Below, in pieces: positions 34,519-58,212 of a stretch of 64,000 nucleotides of DNA. The position numbers and the translations under genes are program-made. Source of the stretch: an uncultured Dehalococcoidia bacterium (GTDB lineage: Bacteria > Chloroflexota > Dehalococcoidia > Lucifugimonadales > GCA-2712585); the NCBI GenBank assembly GCA_951812825.1, contig OX638324.1, positions 1,177,141 through 1,241,140 on the forward strand, in the 5' to 3' direction. Below the pieces are notes generated by a model. That model was given only the letters and a program-made list of their open reading frames with translations. It did not search any database and had not been told where the DNA came from. Each line of letters opens with the position of its first letter. Position 1 is the stretch's first letter.

Positions 34519-35859
34519 ATGAATAAAATAACCCTTGAAAACTACCGTTGTTTCGGCGAAAGGCAGACCGCCCGCATGGCGCCTCTTACGCTGCTTGTGG
34601 GGGAGAATAGTACGGGCAAAACATCTCTGTTAGCGCTAATTCGCGCCCTGACAGACCTCGCCCACCACTCTAAAATTCCCAACTTCAAGGAAGATCCCTA
34701 TGATCTTGGAAGTTACGATGAGATTGCCCATGTCAGAGACGGCAGAGGTGGCCGGGCAAAGACTTTCAAAGCCGGATTTACGTTCCGTACAAATCACAAG
34801 AAAGCTGCGTTGACTAACTTTGATTTCACTTTCAGAGATATTGGGACCGCTCCTGTCCCCATTAGGCGACAGCTTTTCCGCGGAAAGACTTGGATCGACG
34901 AATCATATTCCACGGATAGGCGAAGCACAATGAAAGTGGGCACAAGTCGAGGGATCTGGGAGGTCAACTTGCCTGGAAGAACAGACCGCCCGATAGTCGT
35001 GCGAGGAGATTCGCTACATCCGTATTCGTTAATCTTCCTAATGGATGCGGTAAGAGAAGATGAACGATTTGGTGTGACTGTTAAGCCGATACAGAACTCT
35101 TTACCTATCAGCGAAGAAGATTATAAGCAACTAGCTACTCTTGCAGATTGTCAGTTGGGAATTGGACAACCACGCGCATTCGCAAGTGCCCCGGTCCGTT
35201 CAAAGCCGCGCCGCACGTACGATCCTGCCCGACCTTCTCAAGACTCAGAAGGCGACTATGTTCCCATGCTTCTCGCTGATATGTTTTCTAGGGATACACG
35301 GGCATGGACTAAGCTAAAGTCAAGCCTTGAGAGATTTGGAAGTCTCTCTGGACTATTTGACGAAATCTCCATCAGGCGCCTCGGAAAACGCGAAAGCGAG
35401 CCATTTCAAGTCCAGATTAGAAAATTCCGAGGCCGACGCAAAGGCCCTCAACACAATTTAATCGATGTAGGCTACGGAGTAAGTCAAGCCCTTCCCGTCA
35501 TAACGGAGTTACTAGGCGACAACAAGACGGAACTTTTTCTGTTACAGCAACCGGAAGTCCACCTGCATCCGCGTGCCCAAGCTGCTCTCGGTAGTTTGTT
35601 CTGCGAAGTCGCCGAACCCGACCGACAATTGGTAGTCGAAACCCATAGCGACTATTTGCTTGACAGGGTGCGGATGGAAGTTAGAGACGGCACAGCAGGA
35701 CTCAAGCCGGAGGACGTGTCCATCCTCTTCTTCGAGCGCGTAGGCCTGGATGTCAAAATCCACTCCCTCAGAATCGGAAAACAAGGCAACATTGAAGGTG
35801 CGCCAAACGCGTATCGCCAGTTCTTTATGGAAGAAACGACCAAGTCCTTGGGTCTTTAG
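34519..35859 (+). CDS. OLD/RecF-like AAA ATPase, probable defence or toxin-module partner
   Basis: 446 residues. MNKITLENYRCFGERQTARM and LLVGENSTGKTSLLALI (Walker A, residues 28-36) are the start typical of AAA15/OLD-like SMC-related ATPases. A divergent middle follows, then DVGYGVSQALPVITELL (signature-like), LFLLQQPEVHLHPRAQAAL (Walker B with EVHLHP) and VVETHSDYLLDRVRMEV (His switch). There is no TOPRIM domain after the ATPase, unlike true OLD nucleases. A PIN nuclease gene starts three bases after its stop, so the ATPase may sense a signal and control that nuclease. Base composition is visibly AT-richer than its neighbours, which suggests transfer. Confidence 0.85.
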   Translation: MNKITLENYRCFGERQTARMAPLTLLVGENSTGKTSLLALIRALTDLAHHSKIPNFKEDPYDLGSYDEIAHVRDGRGGRAKTFKAGFTFRTNHKKAALTNFDFTFRDIGTAPVPIRRQLFRGKTWIDESYSTDRRSTMKVGTSRGIWEVNLPGRTDRPIVVRGDSLHPYSLIFLMDAVREDERFGVTVKPIQNSLPISEEDYKQLATLADCQLGIGQPRAFASAPVRSKPRRTYDPARPSQDSEGDYVPMLLADMFSRDTRAWTKLKSSLERFGSLSGLFDEISIRRLGKRESEPFQVQIRKFRGRRKGPQHNLIDVGYGVSQALPVITELLGDNKTELFLLQQPEVHLHPRAQAALGSLFCEVAEPDRQLVVETHSDYLLDRVRMEVRDGTAGLKPEDVSILFFERVGLDVKIHSLRIGKQGNIEGAPNAYRQFFMEETTKSLGL

Positions 35860-50053: not shown

Positions 50054-50083
50054 GGATGGATTCCCGCATCCGCGGGAATGACG
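50054..50083. repeat. REP-like palindrome family A, copy 1
   Basis: GGATGG followed by ATTCCCGC, ATCC, GCGGGAAT and GACG. The same element recurs at 54211-54240, 58183-58212 and 58487-58516, always between genes. In the 54211 copy the loop reads GGAT, the complement of ATCC, so its hairpin core is flipped relative to its left flank. Confidence 0.75.
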
Positions 50084-50100
50084 GGGAAGGGGATAATAGG

Positions 50101-50130
50101 AAGAGGGCGGACCGTGTGGCCCGCCCTCTT
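50101..50130 (-). terminator. Terminator of surface-protein copy A
   Basis: A 10-bp perfect stem (AAGAGGGCGG with its complement) around a 10-base loop lies 24 bases beyond the stop codon. It is identical to 54284-54313 after copy B. Confidence 0.75.
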
Positions 50131-50153
50131 CTGCGTTTCCTCCGGTTGTGAGG

Positions 50154-53100
50154 CTAGGGGACGATTATCCCTGCCTCGTTGGCGTAGACCCAGTAGGCTG
50201 CGCCGGTCTCGACCATGTCCGTGGAGCCCTCTCCAACGGAGAGCCTTACCAGCTTGCCTTCCAAGGATTCGTAGCCGTAGACAACTTCCGCGTCGATGTT
50301 GGCGAAGTAGTCCACCGCCAGAATCTCGGTCCCTGCCTCAGCCTGGTCGGCGTCTACCACACCTACCAGGTTCCAACCCTCGGTTACCGCGATGTGCGGC
50401 GGAGGCTGGAAGTCCGTTCCCTCTTGCAGTCCAACACTCACGTCCAGGACGCCGTCGGAGACGACCCAGTAGCCGTTCATCCCGTTGATGGTGGTCAGAT
50501 CGCCTCCCAGGGTGCCGTCGGCTCCTCGGGTGGCCGTCTGCCACAAACCAGTGGCGTTGTCAAAGGTCAGCACGGCCATGACGTCCTCGTTGCCCTCGCC
50601 TCCGAAGACCGCGTTTACGTCTCCGTCCGCGGGGTCCGCAGGGAAGGAGATGAGGTTCGGCCCGGGGTTCAGCGCAATCTCGTAGTCAGGCTTGTCCACC
50701 TTCTCGAACTCGTGACTGAACTCATCCTCGTTGCCAGCGGCGTCCATGACTTCGATGGTGAAGGTGTGTTCCCCGTTGGTCAGGTTCCCCGGCCTGTATA
50801 CGAACAGCACGTTGTCCCTGGTGATTACGTCGGCAGTCACGTCGTCCCCATTGAAGGTCGCGCTCATGAGAGTGACCGTGCCGCTGGTGTCGAAGTCAGT
50901 TGTTACCATGGAAGGATCTTCTGTGGCGGCGGAGGAGTCGTCATCCTCGGCCAGACCGTACTCCTTGCCTTCGTCGGCGAAGTCCGCCCGTACGAACGCA
51001 CCGGCGTTGGTCGTGGATCCCTCGGGCTTGAAGGCAGGAGCCTGGACTTCGTTGTCCACCTCGAAGAGGATGGCGCTGTCGTCGTCCGGGTCGTGCTTGT
51101 AATCACCAGTGGGCTCGTCATCGTCGTCCATCTGAGCGACGCCCATGGTGCCGGTGGTAGCCTCGAGCTTGAGTGCTCCGCTGCCCAGGTCGTTGCCGGA
51201 GACCATCACGTTGTAGAGACCGTCGTCGCCATCGGCATTGAAGCTGGGCGTGTAGGACCACTGATTGACGGCGCCCGTGGGACTGGCCGTACCTTCCGTA
51301 TCGTCTTGCAGAAGGTTGTTGGCGCCAACCTTGGTTATGGTCACCATGGGGTTGCCCGCGAGCCTTTCGTCCGACTCGATCATTATGGTGATCTCGCCAT
51401 CGGTGATGGGCCGGTCGCCCTCGGCGGTCCCCGTTACCGTTACGCTCAGCTTGGCGGGTATGCCGTCGTTGGCCGTTATCTCATCTTCGTCCCCGATGGG
51501 GTTGCCCGCCCTGTCCGTGAGAGACTCGTTCCCAACCGCAATGTCCGGCCTGTCGTTGGGGTCAAGCTCGTCCACGTCCAGGTAGACCTTGCTCCCGTCA
51601 CAGGTGACTCCGTTGGGGTTGCTTCCGTCGACCTCGAAGTCATCGGCGTCCACGCTGGAGCAGTCCAGGGCCTCGTTGAAGGCGACCACTATGCTGGTCC
51701 GCTTCGCGTCGGTGCCGGACTTCTCCGTGTCACCGTCGAGCCAGGTGCCCGTGTAGGTTTGGGTCTCGTCCAGCTCGGGAGAAGCCGCGTCCACGCGAAC
51801 CACGAAGGGATCGCAGCCTCTGCCCTCAATGTCATTATCCTCATCCTCGGCCACGATGGTGCCGTCAAGGGCAACGAGGGCTCCATCGGAATCGGTGATG
51901 TCAAGCCCCGCCGGGACGGCACACCTGGTGTCTCCGTCGGAGTCGCTGACTCCCACGTTCCCGGCCAGGTCGGTGGAGACCGCCCACCAGTGAATCTGGT
52001 ATTCGGATCCGGCGTTGGCCGCGTCCGCGTCCAGGTCGGATGCTCCTTCTTCTATGCTCACCGATGCGGTGTAGCCGCTGGTCGTTTCTTCCAGCTTCAG
52101 GTCGTCCCGCTCGTAGGCAATGGTCTCCCCAAGGGAGTTCCCTTCAATGGAATAGAGCCCGGCGAGGACGTATATGCTGGACGCGTCGTCCTTGTCTTCG
52201 CTGATGCCCGAGTCCGTGTCCTGCACGTCGAAGGAGACGGTGGGCTCATCCTCCCGACCGGCGGTCCCGCTGGCAGGCGCCATGTTGCTGAAGGAGGGGC
52301 TATCCACGTCCAGCGGTATGCTGGCGCTTCGGTTGCGACTCGGATCCGAGTCCACGTAGACAACCCTGACGGTGTCCCCCGCGTTGTTTACGGGGAGCGT
52401 TACCATGCCCATCCGGTCACTGATGCCAGCGCCGTCGCCCGAATCGGCCTGGGTGGCTACACAATCCTCCTCGGCGGAGTCGCATATCTCCAGCATGGCC
52501 GCAAACTTGCCGCTCCTGGCGGCCGTCTCCGACATAACAATGGAGATTCCCCCGGGGAAGGCATCGCTGCTTAACGTGACGCGGTTGTCTTCTTCGCCGT
52601 AGGCGGGGAGGGGCACGTTCAAGGTGAGGGTTGCTGTGCTTGCGATTTGGATAGCTACAACAGGAGGTGTCGCGCTAGCATCAGCATTAACGGGTCTGTA
52701 GCTGCGAACCGAAATATCTGCCGGGACATCGTCCGACGGATCATTAGGCGTGCCGCTATCGCTGAATTCCGTATCTATCCGGTATTCAAGAACAATGTCC
52801 GGTTCGGACGGCGTGCCTTTGGGAGTATTGGTGGCCCTGACAGCGGCCGCCCCAATGCTACCGTCGTTTTGATTATCCCTAAGATCCGCTGAAGCCATCG
52901 GAGTTATGCCGACGTCGTTAGCGTCAACTTTTCCGTCTCCGTTGGTGTCCAGGATGTCCAACCAGGTCCAGTCGCCAACGGCGTTGTCTGTATCGGCGGC
53001 GTTGAACGCTGTTGGTTCGACATCGGTAATGAATGACAAAGATACTTCACTATCGTCAGCCTGAGCCGTAAGAGTAGCAAGCCTCTTTTCGGAGGCGGCG

Positions 53101-53693
53101 TCTCTGCCGCTGATATCGTCCTGTTCGAAGATCTGGAACTCAAGGTGGGTGGCATTGACGGGATCGTTCGGCAGGGTCGCGACATTCAGAGTGCCGGCTT
53201 GAGTATTGAGAGTCAACTCTCCGGGTTCGATGGTAACCACCGTCTCAAAGGATTGGCGCATGGCGTCGCTTCTCCGAGGGTCATCAGCGGTGGTTTCTCC
53301 CGCATCCGCATCGAACTGATCGTAGTCCGCGGCCTCGCCGGAGCCATCGACAAAGGCGGTGAAGTCCTGATAGTTCACGTTTCCATCGCCGTTGGCGTCA
53401 GCCAGATTGGCCCAGTCCACGGTGTTCGCTTCGGTGTCCGTGGTCTTAGCGCCAACGGCGGCGGTGACCGTTCGCGTCGTGGGCTCATTCAGGTCCTGGT
53501 CCTCGACCTGAATCATGATGGCGTTGCCAGCGCCGCCGAGACCATTGAGGCTGAGGTAGCTGATTTCGTCCCCGTCGCCATCGAGGAACGATATCTCCCC
53601 TGCGTCAGCGGCGAAAGCGGGCATCGCCCACAGTAGCCCCAGTAGCAGGGTCAAAAGTATGCCAGGGATAAACCAAGTTGCTTTTTGTCTCAC
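50154..53693 (-). CDS. Large secreted surface protein, copy A (S-layer/adhesin-like)
   Basis: 1179 residues from the GTG at 53693. The signal peptide ends AMPAFA-AD near residue 29. Two dockerin-like calcium loops are visible, DANGDGNVNYQDFTAF (near 99) and LDTNGDGKVDANDVGI (near 248). The middle is a very acidic series of beta-sandwich-like segments with DTDSGISEDKDD and SVSTDLAGNVGVSDSDGD types. The C-terminus (about 1005-1179) has paired 'NPGPNLISFPADP' and 'GWNLVGVVDADQA' motifs, a likely cell-surface or assembly domain. I do not recognise a named family. The start overlaps an 18-codon leader ORF. Copy B at 54337-57831 is nearly identical except in short islands. Confidence 0.85.
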   Translation of the reverse strand: MRQKATWFIPGILLTLLLGLLWAMPAFAADAGEISFLDGDGDEISYLSLNGLGGAGNAIMIQVEDQDLNEPTTRTVTAAVGAKTTDTEANTVDWANLADANGDGNVNYQDFTAFVDGSGEAADYDQFDADAGETTADDPRRSDAMRQSFETVVTIEPGELTLNTQAGTLNVATLPNDPVNATHLEFQIFEQDDISGRDAASEKRLATLTAQADDSEVSLSFITDVEPTAFNAADTDNAVGDWTWLDILDTNGDGKVDANDVGITPMASADLRDNQNDGSIGAAAVRATNTPKGTPSEPDIVLEYRIDTEFSDSGTPNDPSDDVPADISVRSYRPVNADASATPPVVAIQIASTATLTLNVPLPAYGEEDNRVTLSSDAFPGGISIVMSETAARSGKFAAMLEICDSAEEDCVATQADSGDGAGISDRMGMVTLPVNNAGDTVRVVYVDSDPSRNRSASIPLDVDSPSFSNMAPASGTAGREDEPTVSFDVQDTDSGISEDKDDASSIYVLAGLYSIEGNSLGETIAYERDDLKLEETTSGYTASVSIEEGASDLDADAANAGSEYQIHWWAVSTDLAGNVGVSDSDGDTRCAVPAGLDITDSDGALVALDGTIVAEDEDNDIEGRGCDPFVVRVDAASPELDETQTYTGTWLDGDTEKSGTDAKRTSIVVAFNEALDCSSVDADDFEVDGSNPNGVTCDGSKVYLDVDELDPNDRPDIAVGNESLTDRAGNPIGDEDEITANDGIPAKLSVTVTGTAEGDRPITDGEITIMIESDERLAGNPMVTITKVGANNLLQDDTEGTASPTGAVNQWSYTPSFNADGDDGLYNVMVSGNDLGSGALKLEATTGTMGVAQMDDDDEPTGDYKHDPDDDSAILFEVDNEVQAPAFKPEGSTTNAGAFVRADFADEGKEYGLAEDDDSSAATEDPSMVTTDFDTSGTVTLMSATFNGDDVTADVITRDNVLFVYRPGNLTNGEHTFTIEVMDAAGNEDEFSHEFEKVDKPDYEIALNPGPNLISFPADPADGDVNAVFGGEGNEDVMAVLTFDNATGLWQTATRGADGTLGGDLTTINGMNGYWVVSDGVLDVSVGLQEGTDFQPPPHIAVTEGWNLVGVVDADQAEAGTEILAVDYFANIDAEVVYGYESLEGKLVRLSVGEGSTDMVETGAAYWVYANEAGIIVP

Positions 53694-53746
53694 TTCTCCT
53701 CCCTTTGCGTCTGAGTTTGAGGAACCGACCGGTGGTTATACGTCAT
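53690..53746 (-). CDS. 18-codon leader ORF overlapping copy A start
   Basis: The ATG at 53746-53744 follows AAGGAGG and encodes MTYNHRSVPQTQTQREEK. Its stop TGA overlaps the GTG of the surface protein (GTGA), and the GGGAGGAG encoding its last residues is the ribosome site of the big gene. This arrangement couples translation of the large protein to the leader peptide. The copy B leader at 57828-57884 differs by one residue (Q10R). Because the whole unit is duplicated, conservation between copies alone does not prove function. Confidence 0.6.
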   Translation of the reverse strand: MTYNHRSVPQTQTQREEK

Positions 53747-54075
53747 AGACCAACCTCCTTGTGTCTGATGCCTTGAGGGCGCCAGGGAGGGCCGGTGTTT
53801 CCAAGATGAACGGGTCCGTAATAGTGCATTGCTTCCCTCTCCTGGGACGTGGTTTCCGTAATGTTGGGGGGCTTGCATGGTGAATTGGGGCGTTGGGTGC
53901 GCGGGAAGGCTATCCCAAGGATAGGCCGCGCCGCAGGCGAGCCTGCGGAGGCGTCGAAGGGGACAGCGGCCCTTGCGTATGCCGTAGGTATGTATCTTTG
54001 CCTCTGGTAGGGTTTGGGATGGGCAAGCCTTTATTGGTCATGCGGTACTCTACACAACCCCCCTTGAGATTGTCA
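53747..54075 (-). promoter_or_regulatory. Long leader and promoter of copy A
   Basis: A consensus promoter, TTGACA (54076-54071), 18 bases, TAGAGT (54052-54047), lies about 300 bases upstream of the leader ORF, so the transcript would carry a long untranslated leader. A second -10-like TATAAT lies near 54160. Bases 53747-53892 are almost identical to 57885-58030 before copy B. No known riboswitch class was recognised. Confidence 0.5.
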
Positions 54076-54168
54076 AGTAGTGGGTCGGCCAAAATTCGGC
54101 GGATAATTGATGGGTTTTTGCGATGGTTTCTGGCCGTTTGTTCAATGGACGCGGGGGGTATTATACAG

Positions 54169-54207
54169 GGGTCACTGCGTGACGGCAAGCTGGGGTTGGG
54201 AAGGGCG
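54169..54207. repeat. Interspersed repeat family B, copy 2
   Basis: GTCACTGCGTGACGGCAAGC with a G/T-rich tail, matching 47797-47835 and 58081-58120. It lies close to a TATAAT on the minus strand. Confidence 0.6.
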
Positions 54208-54210
54208 AGA

Positions 54211-54240
54211 GGATGGATTCCCGCGGATGCGGGAATCACG
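54211..54240. repeat. REP-like palindrome family A, copy 2 (flipped core)
   Basis: GGATGGATTCCCGC, GGAT, GCGGGAAT and CACG. Compared with the other three copies the loop is the reverse complement, while the GGATGG left flank is unchanged. Confidence 0.7.
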
Positions 54241-54283
54241 AGGGGGCGAGGGAACAAGAGGAGGAGGGGAAGGGGATAATAGG

Positions 54284-54313
54284 AAGAGGGCGGACCGTGT
54301 GGCCCGCCCTCTT
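54284..54313 (-). terminator. Terminator of surface-protein copy B
   Basis: Identical in sequence and in spacing from the stop codon to the copy A terminator at 50101-50130. Confidence 0.75.
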
Positions 54314-54336
54314 CTGCGTTTCCTCCGGTTGTGAGG

Positions 54337-57300
54337 CTAGGGGACGATTATCCCTGCCTCGTTGGCGTAGACCCAGTAGGCTGCGCCGGTCTCGACCATG
54401 TCCGTGGAGCCCTCTCCAACGGAGAGCCTTACCAGCTTGCCTTCCAGGGATTCGTAGCCGTAGACAACTTCCGCGTCGATGTTGGCGAAGTAGTCCACCG
54501 CCAGAATCTCGGTCCCTGCCTCAGCCTGGTCGGCGTCTACCACACCTACCAGGTTCCAACCCTCGGTTACCGCGATGTGCGGCGGAGGCTGGAAGTCCGT
54601 TCCCTCTTGCAGTCCGACACTCACGTCCAGGACGCCGTCGGAGACGACCCAGTAGCCGTTCATCCCGTTGATGGTGGTCAGATCGCCTCCCAGGGCGCCG
54701 TCGGCTCCTCGGGTGGCCGTCTGCCACAAACCGGTGGCGTTGTCAAAGGTCAGCACGGCCATGATGTCCTCGTTGCCCTCGCCTCCGAAGACCGCGTTTA
54801 CATCTCCGTCCGCGGGGTCCGCAGGGAAGGAGATGAGGTTCGGCCCGGGGTTCAGCGCAATCTCGTAGTCAGGCTTGTCCACCTTCTCGAACTCGTGGCT
54901 GAACTCATCCTCGTTGCCAGCGGCGTCCATGACTTCGATGGTGAAGGTGTGTTCCCCGTTGGTCAGGTTCCCAGGCCTGTATACGAACAGCACGTTGTCC
55001 CTGGTGATTACGTCGGCAGTCACGTCGTCCCCATTGAAGGTCGCGCTCATGAGAGTGACCCCGCCGCTGGTGTCGAAGTCGGTGTCGACTTCACCGGGGG
55101 TTACCGCGACAGCGCCGTTCTCGTCCAGACCGTACTCCTTGCCTTCGTCGGCGAAGTCCGCGCGTACGAACGCACCGGCGTTGGTCGTGGATCCCTCGGG
55201 CTTGAAGGCGGGAGCCTGGACTTCGTTGTCCACCTCGAAGAGGATGGCGCTGTCGTCGTCCGGGTCGTGCATGGGACGCCTGGGAATGCCATCGTCGCCC
55301 ACCGGAACGTCGCCCATGGTGCCGGCGGTGGCCTCGAGCTTGAGTGCTCCGCTGCCCAGGTCGTTGCCGGAGACCACGACGTTGTAGAGACCGTGGTCGT
55401 CATCGGCATTGAAGCCGCGCGTGTAGGACCACTGATTAACGGCGCCCGTGGGACTGGCCGTACCGGTGGCATTTGCATCCCCATACAGGACGTAGTCGAA
55501 GACAACCTTGGTTATGGTCACCATGGGATTGCCCGCGAGCCTTTCGTCCGACTCGATCATTATGGTGATCTCGCCATCGGTGATGGGCCGGTCGCCCTCG
55601 GCGGTCCCCGTTACGGTTACGCTCAGCTTGGCGGGTATACCGTCGTTGGCGGTTATCTCATCTTCGTCCCCGATGAGGTTGCCCGCCCTGTCCGTGAGGG
55701 ACTCGTTCCCAACTTCAATGTCCGGCCTGTCGTTCGGGTCAAGCTCGTCCACGTCCAGGTAGACCTTGTTGCCGTCACAGGTGACTCCGTTGGGGTTGCT
55801 TCCGTCGACCTCAAAGTCATCGGCGTCCACGCTGGAGCAGTCCAGGGCCTCGTTGAAGGCAACCACTATGCTGGTCCGCTTCGCGTCGGAGCCGGACTTC
55901 TCCGTGTCACCGTCCAGCCAGGTGCCCGTGTAGGTTTGGGTCTCGTCCAGCTCGGGAGAAGCCGCGTCCACGCGAACCACGAAGGGATCGCAGCCTCTGC
56001 CCACAGTTGTCACGTTGCCATCGTCGTCCTTGACCTCGGCCACGATGCCTGCGTCAAGGAGTAGGAGGGAGCCATCAGAATCGGTGGCGCTAAACCGGAA
56101 CGGGACAGCACACTCGGTATCTCCGTCGGAGTCGCTGACTCCCACGTTCCCGGCCAGGTCGGTGGAGACCGCCCACCAGTGAATCTGGTATTCGGATCCG
56201 GCGTTGGCCGCGTCCGCGTCCAGGTCGGATGCTCCTTCTTCTATGCTCACCGATGCGGTGTAGCCGCTGGTCGTTTCTTCCAGCTTCAGGTCGTCCCGCT
56301 CGTAGGCTATGGTCTCCCCAAGGGGGTTCCCTTCAATGGAATAGAGCCCCGCGAGGACGTATATGCTGGACGCGTCGTCCTTGTCTTCGCTGATCCCCGA
56401 GTCCGTGTCCTGCACGTCGAAGGAGACGGTGGGCTCATCCTCCCGACCGGCGGTCCCGCTGGCCGGGGCCAGATTGCTGAAGGAGGGGGCATCCACGTCC
56501 AGCGGTATGCTGGCCGTTCGGTTGCGACTCGGATCCGAGTCCGCGTAGACAACCCTGACGGTGTCTCCGGCGTTGTTCACGGGGAGCCTTACCATGCCCA
56601 TCCGGTCACTGATGCCAGTGCCGTCGCCCGAATCGCCCTGGGTGGCTACACAATGGGGGTGGGCGCATATCTGCAGCATGGCCGCAAACTTGCCGCTCCT
56701 GGCGGCCGTCTCCGACAGAACAACGGAGATTCCCCCGGGGAAGGCATCGCTGCTTACCGTGACGCGGTTGTCTTCCGAGCCGTAGGCCGGGAGGGGCACG
56801 TTCAAGGTGAGGGTTACATTTACCTCAACGTTGCCATAGGCTGTGACCGTCACTATTGCCAGGGTGTCGTCGGTATAGTCGTCCGGCGTGTCATTATCAT
56901 CGAAAGCCGCGGTTATGTCGTATTCGACCTCCAACACTTCGATACCACGTGCATTGACGGCCCTAATGGCAGCAGCGTCAAGGGTACCGTCGTTACTGTT
57001 ACCATTAAGGGTACTCGAATCTGCCACTGGGTTAACGCCGACGTCGTCACCATCCAGGTCACCGTCTCTGTTGGTGTCCAGGATGTCCAGCCAGGTCCAA
57101 ACCGTATCACTGACTCGATTCTGGTAGGTATCGGGCTTGGGCGGCGCGACGTCGGTAATGGAAGGAACAGCCAAGGTGCGAGATGCCTCCGCTGAACCCG
57201 AATCATTATAGAACCGCCTTTCCCAGGCGGCGTCTCTGCCGCCGATGACGTCCTGTTCGAAGATCTGGAACTCGATGTGGGTGGAATTGGCGGGATCGTT

Positions 57301-57831
57301 CGGCAGGATCGCGATATTCAGAGTGCCGGCTTGAGTATTGAGATTCAGATCTCCAGGTTGGATGGGAACCACCGTCTCAAAGGACTGGCGCTTGGCGTCG
57401 CTTCTCCGAGGGTCATCAGCGGTGGTTTCTCCCGCATCCCCATCGAACTGATCGTAGTCCGCGTCCGCGCCGGAGCCATCGATAAAGGCGGTGAAGTCCT
57501 GATAGTTCACGTTTCCATCGCCGTTGGCGTCAGCCAGATTGGCCCAGTCCACGGTGTTCGCTGGAGTCTCGGTGTCCGTGGTCTTATCGCCCCTGGCGGA
57601 GGTGATCGTTCGCGTCGTGGGCTCGTTCAGGTCCTGGTCCTCTACCTGAATCATGATGGCGTTGCCGGCGGCGCCGAGCCCCACGTGGCTGAGGTAGCTG
57701 ATTTCGTTCCCGTCGCCATCGAGGAACGATATCTCCCCTGCGTCAGCGGCGAAAGCGGGCATCGCCCACAGTAGCCCCAGTAGCAGGGTCAAAAGTATGC
57801 CAGGGATAAACCGGGTTGCTTTTTGTCTCAC
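54337..57831 (-). CDS. Large secreted surface protein, copy B (tandem paralogue)
   Basis: 1164 residues from the GTG at 57831, with the same signal peptide (one residue differs, W7R) and the same C-terminal 175 residues apart from single changes such as V/I and T/A. Calcium loops are DANGDGNVNYQDFTAF and LDTNRDGDLDGDDVGV. It diverges from copy A in islands near residues 200-355 and in short, length-changing patches (for example CAHPHC in place of CDSAEEDC, FDYVLYGDANA in place of GANNLLQDDTE, DENGAVAVTPGEVD in place of AEDDDSSAATEDPSMVT). Blocks between islands are nearly identical at the DNA level. It should be exported and Ca2+-stabilised at the cell surface. Confidence 0.85.
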   Translation of the reverse strand: MRQKATRFIPGILLTLLLGLLWAMPAFAADAGEISFLDGDGNEISYLSHVGLGAAGNAIMIQVEDQDLNEPTTRTITSARGDKTTDTETPANTVDWANLADANGDGNVNYQDFTAFIDGSGADADYDQFDGDAGETTADDPRRSDAKRQSFETVVPIQPGDLNLNTQAGTLNIAILPNDPANSTHIEFQIFEQDVIGGRDAAWERRFYNDSGSAEASRTLAVPSITDVAPPKPDTYQNRVSDTVWTWLDILDTNRDGDLDGDDVGVNPVADSSTLNGNSNDGTLDAAAIRAVNARGIEVLEVEYDITAAFDDNDTPDDYTDDTLAIVTVTAYGNVEVNVTLTLNVPLPAYGSEDNRVTVSSDAFPGGISVVLSETAARSGKFAAMLQICAHPHCVATQGDSGDGTGISDRMGMVRLPVNNAGDTVRVVYADSDPSRNRTASIPLDVDAPSFSNLAPASGTAGREDEPTVSFDVQDTDSGISEDKDDASSIYVLAGLYSIEGNPLGETIAYERDDLKLEETTSGYTASVSIEEGASDLDADAANAGSEYQIHWWAVSTDLAGNVGVSDSDGDTECAVPFRFSATDSDGSLLLLDAGIVAEVKDDDGNVTTVGRGCDPFVVRVDAASPELDETQTYTGTWLDGDTEKSGSDAKRTSIVVAFNEALDCSSVDADDFEVDGSNPNGVTCDGNKVYLDVDELDPNDRPDIEVGNESLTDRAGNLIGDEDEITANDGIPAKLSVTVTGTAEGDRPITDGEITIMIESDERLAGNPMVTITKVVFDYVLYGDANATGTASPTGAVNQWSYTRGFNADDDHGLYNVVVSGNDLGSGALKLEATAGTMGDVPVGDDGIPRRPMHDPDDDSAILFEVDNEVQAPAFKPEGSTTNAGAFVRADFADEGKEYGLDENGAVAVTPGEVDTDFDTSGGVTLMSATFNGDDVTADVITRDNVLFVYRPGNLTNGEHTFTIEVMDAAGNEDEFSHEFEKVDKPDYEIALNPGPNLISFPADPADGDVNAVFGGEGNEDIMAVLTFDNATGLWQTATRGADGALGGDLTTINGMNGYWVVSDGVLDVSVGLQEGTDFQPPPHIAVTEGWNLVGVVDADQAEAGTEILAVDYFANIDAEVVYGYESLEGKLVRLSVGEGSTDMVETGAAYWVYANEAGIIVP

Positions 57832-57884
57832 TTCTCCTCCCTTTGCGTCTGAGTTCGAGGAACCGACCGGTGGTTATATGTCAT
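57828..57884 (-). CDS. 18-codon leader ORF overlapping copy B start
   Basis: The ATG at 57884-57882 after AAGGAGG encodes MTYNHRSVPRTQTQREEK and ends in the GTGA overlap with copy B. An upstream one-base difference from copy A (CAAAGGAGG against CAAGGAGG) shifts any longer upstream frame, so only this short frame is shared by both copies. Confidence 0.55.
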   Translation of the reverse strand: MTYNHRSVPRTQTQREEK

Positions 57885-58080
57885 AGACCAACCTCCTTTG
57901 AGTCTGATGCCTTGAGGGCGCCAGGGAGGGCCGGTGTTTCCAAGATGAACGGGTCCGTAATAGTGCATTGCTTCCCTCTCCTGGGACGTGGTTTCCGTGA
58001 TGTTGAGGGGCTTGCATGGTGAATTGGGGTGTCGGTGCGGGGGAAATTATACAGTGTGTATGAGGGGAGGGGAAGGGAGT

Positions 58081-58120
58081 GGGTCACTGCGTGACGGCAG
58101 GTTTGGGGTTGGGCGTGGGG
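58081..58120. repeat. Interspersed repeat family B, copy 3
   Basis: GGGTCACTGCGTGACGGCAG with a tail ending GGGGTTGGGCGTGGGG, matching 47797-47835 and 54169-54207. Confidence 0.6.
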
Positions 58121-58182: not shown

Positions 58183-58212
58183 GGATGGATTCCCGCATCC
58201 GCGGGAATGACG
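58183..58212. repeat. REP-like palindrome family A, copy 3
   Basis: The same 30 bases as 50054-50083 (hairpin arms ATTCCCGC and GCGGGAAT, loop ATCC). Confidence 0.75.

What the first reader, a model, noticed from the sequence alone, without database searches (positions are those of the whole stretch)
50083..58030. Tandem duplicated ~3.8 kb surface-protein units with mosaic, length-variable islands
Two head-to-tail units (about 50083-53892 and 54266-58030) share leader, 18-codon uORF, signal peptide, long coding blocks and terminator at near identity. The proteins diverge abruptly in patches: copy A residues ~200-355, ~402-416, ~590-625, ~789-802, ~846-867, ~914-940. Patches keep frame but change length and sequence (e.g. 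CDSAEEDC vs CAHPHC). Sharp edges between identical and divergent blocks are seen directly. Gene conversion homogenising the frame while islands diversify, perhaps exposed loops under phage or immune pressure, is inference.
Basis: partly seen in the sequence, partly recalled or inferred. Interest (0 to 1): 0.85.

Follow-up and report, generated by a model that had tools for sequence, protein, structure and literature searches.

The report
Tandem mosaic surface-protein gene pair
A Dehalococcoidia (Chloroflexota) chromosome carries two side-by-side copies of a large cell-surface protein gene whose backbone is nearly identical while six sharply bounded patches are almost unrelated, and the same backbone/patch mosaic appears between single-copy versions in related species, which points to DNA exchange that keeps the backbone common while variable surface regions are swapped or diversified.

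Summary
Copies A (50154-53693, -) and B (54337-57831, -) share leader, 18-codon uORF, signal peptide, terminator and a framework with dS 0.07. Six islands have dS about 1.0, dN 0.69 and in-frame indels, with edges sharp to a few codons. Synonymous sites jump too, so selection on the protein alone cannot explain the pattern; recombination is needed. Islands coincide with family-wide indel-rich columns. The specific claim of gene conversion between the two copies is not supported: framework synonymous changes are evenly spread, there are no silent cassettes and no reverse transcriptase, and old tandem pairs in other genera are not homogenised. Instead, single-copy orthologues of sister species show the same mosaic. 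In one genus the flanking genes differ at about 50% of four-fold sites, the framework at 9-26% and the N-terminal island at 21-55%. Best reading: a putative S-layer-type protein whose alleles are mosaics made by homologous recombination between lineages, with A and B a recent duplication (or two joined alleles). A keeps a genus-conserved promoter that B lacks. Phage or immune pressure and S-layer identity are inference; structure models failed. This resembles known recombining surface-protein loci; I found no report for this clade in the library searched.

The parts
50154..53693 (-). Copy A: surface-type protein gene, 1179 aa, GTG start, signal peptide, two EF-hand-like Ca loops, bacterial Ig-like domains, conserved C-terminal domain
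54337..57831 (-). Copy B: tandem paralogue, 1164 aa, framework 95% identical in amino acids to A, islands 33%
53690..53746 (-). 18-codon uORF of A (MTYNHRSVPQTQTQREEK), its TGA overlaps the GTG start
57828..57884 (-). 18-codon uORF of B (MTYNHRSVPRTQTQREEK)
52632..53093 (-). Island 1 of A (residues ~201-354, with two short identical stretches); GC3 0.52 versus 0.82 in framework after residue 355
56812..57225 (-). Island 1 of B (residues ~203-340); GC3 0.59
   Evidence: B limits derived from the alignment
52464..52484 (-). Island 2 of A: Cys-bracketed loop CDSAEEDC (B: CAHPHC, about 56653-56667)
51825..51929 (-). Island 3 of A, residues 589-623 (B about 56002-56118)
51291..51326 (-). Island 4 of A, residues 790-801 (B about 55462-55503)
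51093..51140 (-). Island 5 of A, residues 852-867 (B about 55267-55311)
50898..50954 (-). Island 6 of A, residues 914-932 (B about 55081-55128)
50100..50131 (-). Terminator-like 14-bp hairpin after A
54283..54314 (-). Identical terminator-like hairpin after B
54047..54076 (-). Promoter of A, TTGACA-18-TAGAGT; same motif TTGACAA..GGTTGTGTA(G/C)AGTACCG upstream of the G001 and G002 orthologues, absent upstream of B
50057..50079 (-). REP-like palindrome ATTCCCGCGGATGCGGGAATCCA downstream of A
54217..54239 (+). REP-like palindrome between the units (inverted loop)
58186..58208 (-). REP-like palindrome upstream of B; this exact 21-nt variant occurs only at the three unit boundaries among 14 matches in the genome

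Best explanation
A and B encode a secreted, Ca-loop and Ig-domain surface protein, plausibly the S-layer-type protein of this Dehalococcoidia lineage. Alleles of this family are mosaics: a conserved framework (leader, signal peptide, Ig domains, C-terminal anchor-like domain) is exchanged by homologous recombination between strains and even species. A hypervariable N-terminal region and several short loops are carried along, swapped or locally replaced, and so keep deep divergence. The pair in this genome arose recently (framework dS about 0.07) by tandem duplication, possibly at the flanking REP-like repeats, or by joining of two alleles; the copies then differ in island content. A has the genus-conserved promoter and B has lost it, so B is probably expressed less or differently. 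Shown: the mosaic, its synonymous component, the cross-species parallel, the promoter asymmetry. Inferred: S-layer role, surface exposure of islands, selective agent, REP-mediated duplication, and how the short islands get codon-exact edges.
For: Framework dS 0.068 / dN 0.024 versus islands dS 1.0 / dN 0.69; four-fold sites p = 3e-11; 2dLL 640. Framework synonymous changes uniform with no rise towards island edges. Single-copy orthologues in genus g26: flanking genes 46-57% four-fold divergence, framework 9-26%, N-terminal island 46-55% in five of six pairs and 21% in G087-G028, where the whole gene is low. Fisher tests on three pairs: framework versus flanks p <= 3e-21, island versus flanks not significant; nucleotide profile G087-G076: flanks about 80-85%, leader/signal peptide 93-97%, island about 69%, framework 91-100%, downstream about 85%. 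Codon bias cannot explain the low framework divergence (expected mismatch at saturation about 0.6). A control genus shows the family diverging to rho level, so no intrinsic synonymous constraint. G114-G120 copy 2: 49-71% four-fold divergence over residues 46-900 against a 17% background, with 7% at residues 1-45 and 32% after 900, i.e. a divergent middle between retained ends. Islands sit on family-wide indel-rich columns (circular-shift p = 0.001). Conserved promoter in A, G001, G002 but not B. Family in 69 of 98 relatives.
Against: No second allele of this species could be sampled, so recombination in its own population is not observed. Island edges are sharp to a few codons even for 7-19-codon islands, which homologous import explains only if the donor already shares the framework. 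Strong selection on synonymous sites in one genus cannot be fully excluded, and four-fold sites are near saturation in the background. G087-G028 shows low divergence in the island too, so island and framework can move together.
Confidence: 0.56

Rival explanations
1. Old tandem duplicates whose framework is repeatedly homogenised by gene conversion between the two copies, while islands escape.
For: Head-to-tail arrangement; framework, leader and terminator alike while islands are deeply diverged. Two tandem pairs in another genus share near-identical signal-peptide DNA but little else.
Against: Framework synonymous changes are homogeneous among blocks with no long converted tracts and no edge gradient. 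Old tandem pairs elsewhere are diverged (48-50% identical where scored) and saturated at four-fold sites. The same mosaic arises without a second copy. G001, same genus, yields only one copy.
Confidence: 0.2
2. An in-genome antigen or receptor switching pair: A is the expressed copy with the conserved promoter, B a weakly expressed reserve that donates islands.
For: The genus-conserved promoter is upstream of A only; B has just TTCCCC-17-TATAAT. Homologous framework flanks every island.
Against: Only one possible donor, no silent cassettes in the single-contig chromosome, no reverse transcriptase, no sign of recent A-to-B transfer in islands.
Confidence: 0.1
3. Assembly artefact: two strain alleles of one locus placed in tandem in a metagenome-assembled chromosome.
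For: The organism appears to be an uncultured metagenome-assembled genome (inference); framework dS 0.07 would suit two strains; G001 yields one copy.
Against: One 2.47 Mb contig; the junction contains unique sequence, and A and B have different upstream regions and promoters; shared ends at the junction are short (about 20-40 nt), not long overlaps; tandem copies of this family are also found in other genera.
Confidence: 0.09
4. Diversifying selection alone on loops after a recent duplication.
For: Islands lie at loop-like, indel-rich family positions.
Against: Island synonymous sites are also strongly diverged (dS about 1 versus 0.07) and island GC3 is 0.53-0.62 versus 0.80; point selection does not do that.
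Confidence: 0.03

Closest known systems
Clostridioides difficile S-layer cassette (slpA)
   Same: Major surface protein whose locus lies in a high-recombination zone (PMC7677006); SlpA reported as general phage receptor (PMC10100898, title and abstract).
   Different: No relationship seen in the searches run here; a multi-gene cassette, not a tandem mosaic pair; phage role tested there, not here.
Haloquadratum walsbyi S-layer glycoprotein / cell-wall island
   Same: Environmental organism; S-layer gene diversified by homologous recombination, proposed to limit viral infection (PMC4535781).
   Different: Archaeal protein; variation described at gene and island scale; here a conserved framework with short codon-exact islands and in-frame indels.
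Neisseria opa family
   Same: Several copies per genome with semivariable and hypervariable regions, near-identical copies in one genome (PMC13183285).
   Different: Dispersed loci with phase-variable reading frames; the paper finds little interspecies recombination, whereas here the framework looks shared across species.
SiiE-type Ca-binding bacterial Ig domains
   Same: Best profile match of the family to a solved structure, 2yn3 at E = 1e-6 over about 70 positions (its identity as SiiE is from my own knowledge).
   Different: Only Ig-like stretches match; overall architecture and secretion differ.

Membership tests
Recombining mosaic surface-protein locus (slpA/opa-like behaviour) | Conserved frame with sharply bounded divergent regions, visible at synonymous sites | tested here: met
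Recombining mosaic surface-protein locus (slpA/opa-like behaviour) | Allelic recombination observed among strains of one species | not testable with these tools
Recombining mosaic surface-protein locus (slpA/opa-like behaviour) | Variable regions are surface-exposed loops | tested here: inconclusive
   family indel and conservation mapping fits; AlphaFold models too poor
Bacterial S-layer protein | Secreted, acidic, large, repeated beta domains, conserved terminal domain | tested here: met
   signal peptide by sequence inspection; pI about 4.0; Big_5/Big_13 and EF-hand hits below cut-off; conserved C-terminus
Bacterial S-layer protein | Forms the paracrystalline layer or is the most abundant surface protein | not testable with these tools
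   literature says SAR202 lacks peptidoglycan and has an S-layer (PMC11994032, PMC10444878) but does not name this protein in the passages read
Silent-cassette antigenic variation | Unexpressed donor cassettes elsewhere in the genome | tested here: not met
   (island 1 of A and B searched as DNA; whole proteins)
Diversity-generating retroelement target | Reverse transcriptase; adenine-specific substitutions without indels | tested here: not met
   no RVT_1 in genome; indels and mixed substitution types
Paralogue gene conversion (concerted evolution) | Patchy, tract-like homogenisation of the copies | tested here: not met
   uniform synonymous differences, no excess identical tracts; limited power, 41 synonymous codon differences

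The most novel reading that the evidence does not exclude
In this Chloroflexota clade the S-layer framework is a common good shared by recombination across species, while each lineage carries private hypervariable patches; some genomes, like this one, hold two alleles in tandem under different promoters so that one cell can present two surface variants.
Probability: 0.25. Interest if true: 0.75.

Novelty: new member of a known kind. Interest (0 to 1): 0.55.

Why it matters
SAR202-type Dehalococcoidia are described as lacking peptidoglycan, so their outermost protein is both wall and interface with phages, predators and hosts. A family present across the order, often near rho, with a framework shared between species and hypervariable patches gives a concrete candidate for that interface. 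It makes questions on phage receptors, strain coexistence and surface recombination in this clade testable from metagenomes.

Tried and rejected
Relatives in genome contigs and viral contigs: only the G001 genome was found. Silent cassettes: none. DGR: no reverse transcriptase, wrong substitution pattern. GTCACGCAGTGAC as a regulator site: it is part of an intergenic repeat found 7 times. Codon bias as cause of low framework divergence in g26: rejected. Intrinsic synonymous constraint: not seen in genus g73. Structure: full-length and fragment AlphaFold runs had pLDDT 31 and 40, so no fold search was made. NCBIfam: nothing above cut-off. PDB phmmer listed essentially calmodulin EF-hand matches.

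Full report
WHAT IS THERE. The window lies in a 2,472,204-base single-contig genome. Its same-genus relative G001 matches, in contig length and position, a public record titled 'uncultured Dehalococcoidia bacterium' (OY282371.1; Chloroflexota). That both are metagenome-assembled SAR202-type genomes is inference. Two minus-strand genes, A (50154-53693, 1179 aa) and B (54337-57831, 1164 aa), stand head to tail beside pyrG, a transaldolase-type gene and rho (the transaldolase name is by sequence inspection). Each has a leader, an 18-codon uORF whose TGA overlaps the GTG start, a signal peptide and an identical terminator-like hairpin. uORFs of the same length and position, with different peptides, are found in G001 and G002, so the coupling geometry is what is conserved.

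THE MOSAIC. A two-state HMM on the codon alignment improves on one state by 2dLL = 640. Framework: 956 codons, dS 0.068, dN 0.024. Islands: 233 alignment columns, dS 1.0, dN 0.69, in-frame indels. At four-fold sites coding the same residue, 25/373 differ in the framework and 17/30 in islands (p = 3e-11). Within 5 codons of an island only 1 of 60 framework codons has a synonymous change. Island third positions are GC-poor (0.53 in A, 0.62 in B) against 0.80 in the framework and 0.71-0.86 in all but one of the neighbouring genes sampled; the matching regions of paralogue C and of G001 are normal for those genes (0.69, 0.80). This is more than chance and more than amino-acid selection.

FAMILY. 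The protein belongs to a family found in 69 of 98 relatives at E <= 1e-3 and 120 of 250 order members at E <= 1e-15, often beside rho (contexts read). Domains are weak Big_5/Big_13 and EF-hand-like matches. A third, distant paralogue C lies at G000:C1:1892520-1895879. Beyond residue 355 the A/B islands fall on columns where the other members have gaps (mean 0.47 versus 0.06) and low conservation (0.23 versus 0.47; circular-shift p = 0.001), which is what variable loops look like.

MECHANISM TESTS. (1) If the copies were homogenised piecemeal by conversion, framework blocks should differ in synonymous divergence. They do not: chi2 p = 0.61; the longest run without a synonymous change is 65 codons versus 95 expected on shuffling. 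Power is limited (41 events). (2) Old tandem pairs in other genera (G114, G116, G119, G120, G097, G073) are diverged and saturated, apart from signal-peptide DNA in G097 and G073. (3) Single-copy orthologues of four species in genus g26 show the same mosaic. Flanking genes differ at 46-57% of four-fold sites. The framework differs at 9-26%. The N-terminal island differs at 46-55% in five pairs and at 21% in G087-G028, where the whole gene is low, including its island. Along G087-G076 nucleotide identity is about 80-85% in the flanks, 93-97% in leader and signal peptide, about 69% in the island, 91-100% in the framework, and about 85% after the gene. Codon bias does not explain this. (4) In control genus g73 the gene diverges at synonymous sites as much as rho, so there is no built-in constraint. 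There, G114-G120 flanks differ at 17%, whereas tandem copy 2 differs at 49-71% over residues 46-900, 7% at residues 1-45 and 32% after 900: a divergent middle between retained ends. Together these favour homologous recombination between lineages at this locus, for which a tandem partner is not required.

THE PAIR. Duplication is recent by framework dS. Three REP-like palindromes of one exact 21-nt variant, found nowhere else among 14 matches in the genome, sit at the three unit boundaries; the middle one is inverted. This suggests but does not prove repeat-mediated duplication. A keeps the promoter TTGACAA..GGTTGTGTA(G/C)AGTACCG seen upstream of G001 and G002; B has none, only a weak TTCCCC-17-TATAAT. 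B is therefore probably expressed less or differently (inference).

FUNCTION. SAR202 bacteria are reported to lack peptidoglycan and to have an S-layer (PMC11994032; PMC10444878). A secreted acidic Ig-domain protein with a conserved C-terminus and order-wide presence is a candidate for that layer, but this is inference; the passages read do not name this protein. Phage or immune pressure is plausible by analogy (C. difficile SlpA, H. walsbyi) but untested here. Island dN/dS is about 0.7, so no direct sign of positive selection.

OPEN. How 7-19-codon islands obtain codon-exact borders is unresolved; import requires donors that already share the framework, i.e. alleles of the same recombining population. 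No such allele could be sampled. An assembly artefact is unlikely but needs spanning reads.

Noticed in passing
window 34519-35859 (+): AAA_15/AAA_21 ATPase gene with GC3 0.50, far below the 0.71-0.86 of the other window genes sampled; looks recently acquired, possibly OLD-family/defence type.
   Followed up: partly
L080 (G097) and L081 (G073): Tandem paralogues with near-identical signal-peptide DNA (0/8 and 2/12 four-fold differences) but saturated divergence elsewhere.
   Followed up: partly
window 54171-54183 and 58083-58095: GTCACGCAGTGAC palindrome, seven exact copies of GTCACGCAGTGACCC in the genome; tail of an intergenic repeat.
   Followed up: yes
G120/G114 copy 2 (L078:3428-7282, L076:6935-10837): Between close species (17% background four-fold divergence) the middle of this tandem copy is divergent while residues 1-45 and the C-terminal part are kept.
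   Followed up: partly
window copy A versus copy B: B has 10 N-x-S/T sequons versus 5 in A, several of the extra ones in islands; possible glycosylation difference.
   Followed up: no
L034:7521-10910 (-): Third, dispersed family paralogue in the same genome without the uORF or conserved promoter.
   Followed up: partly
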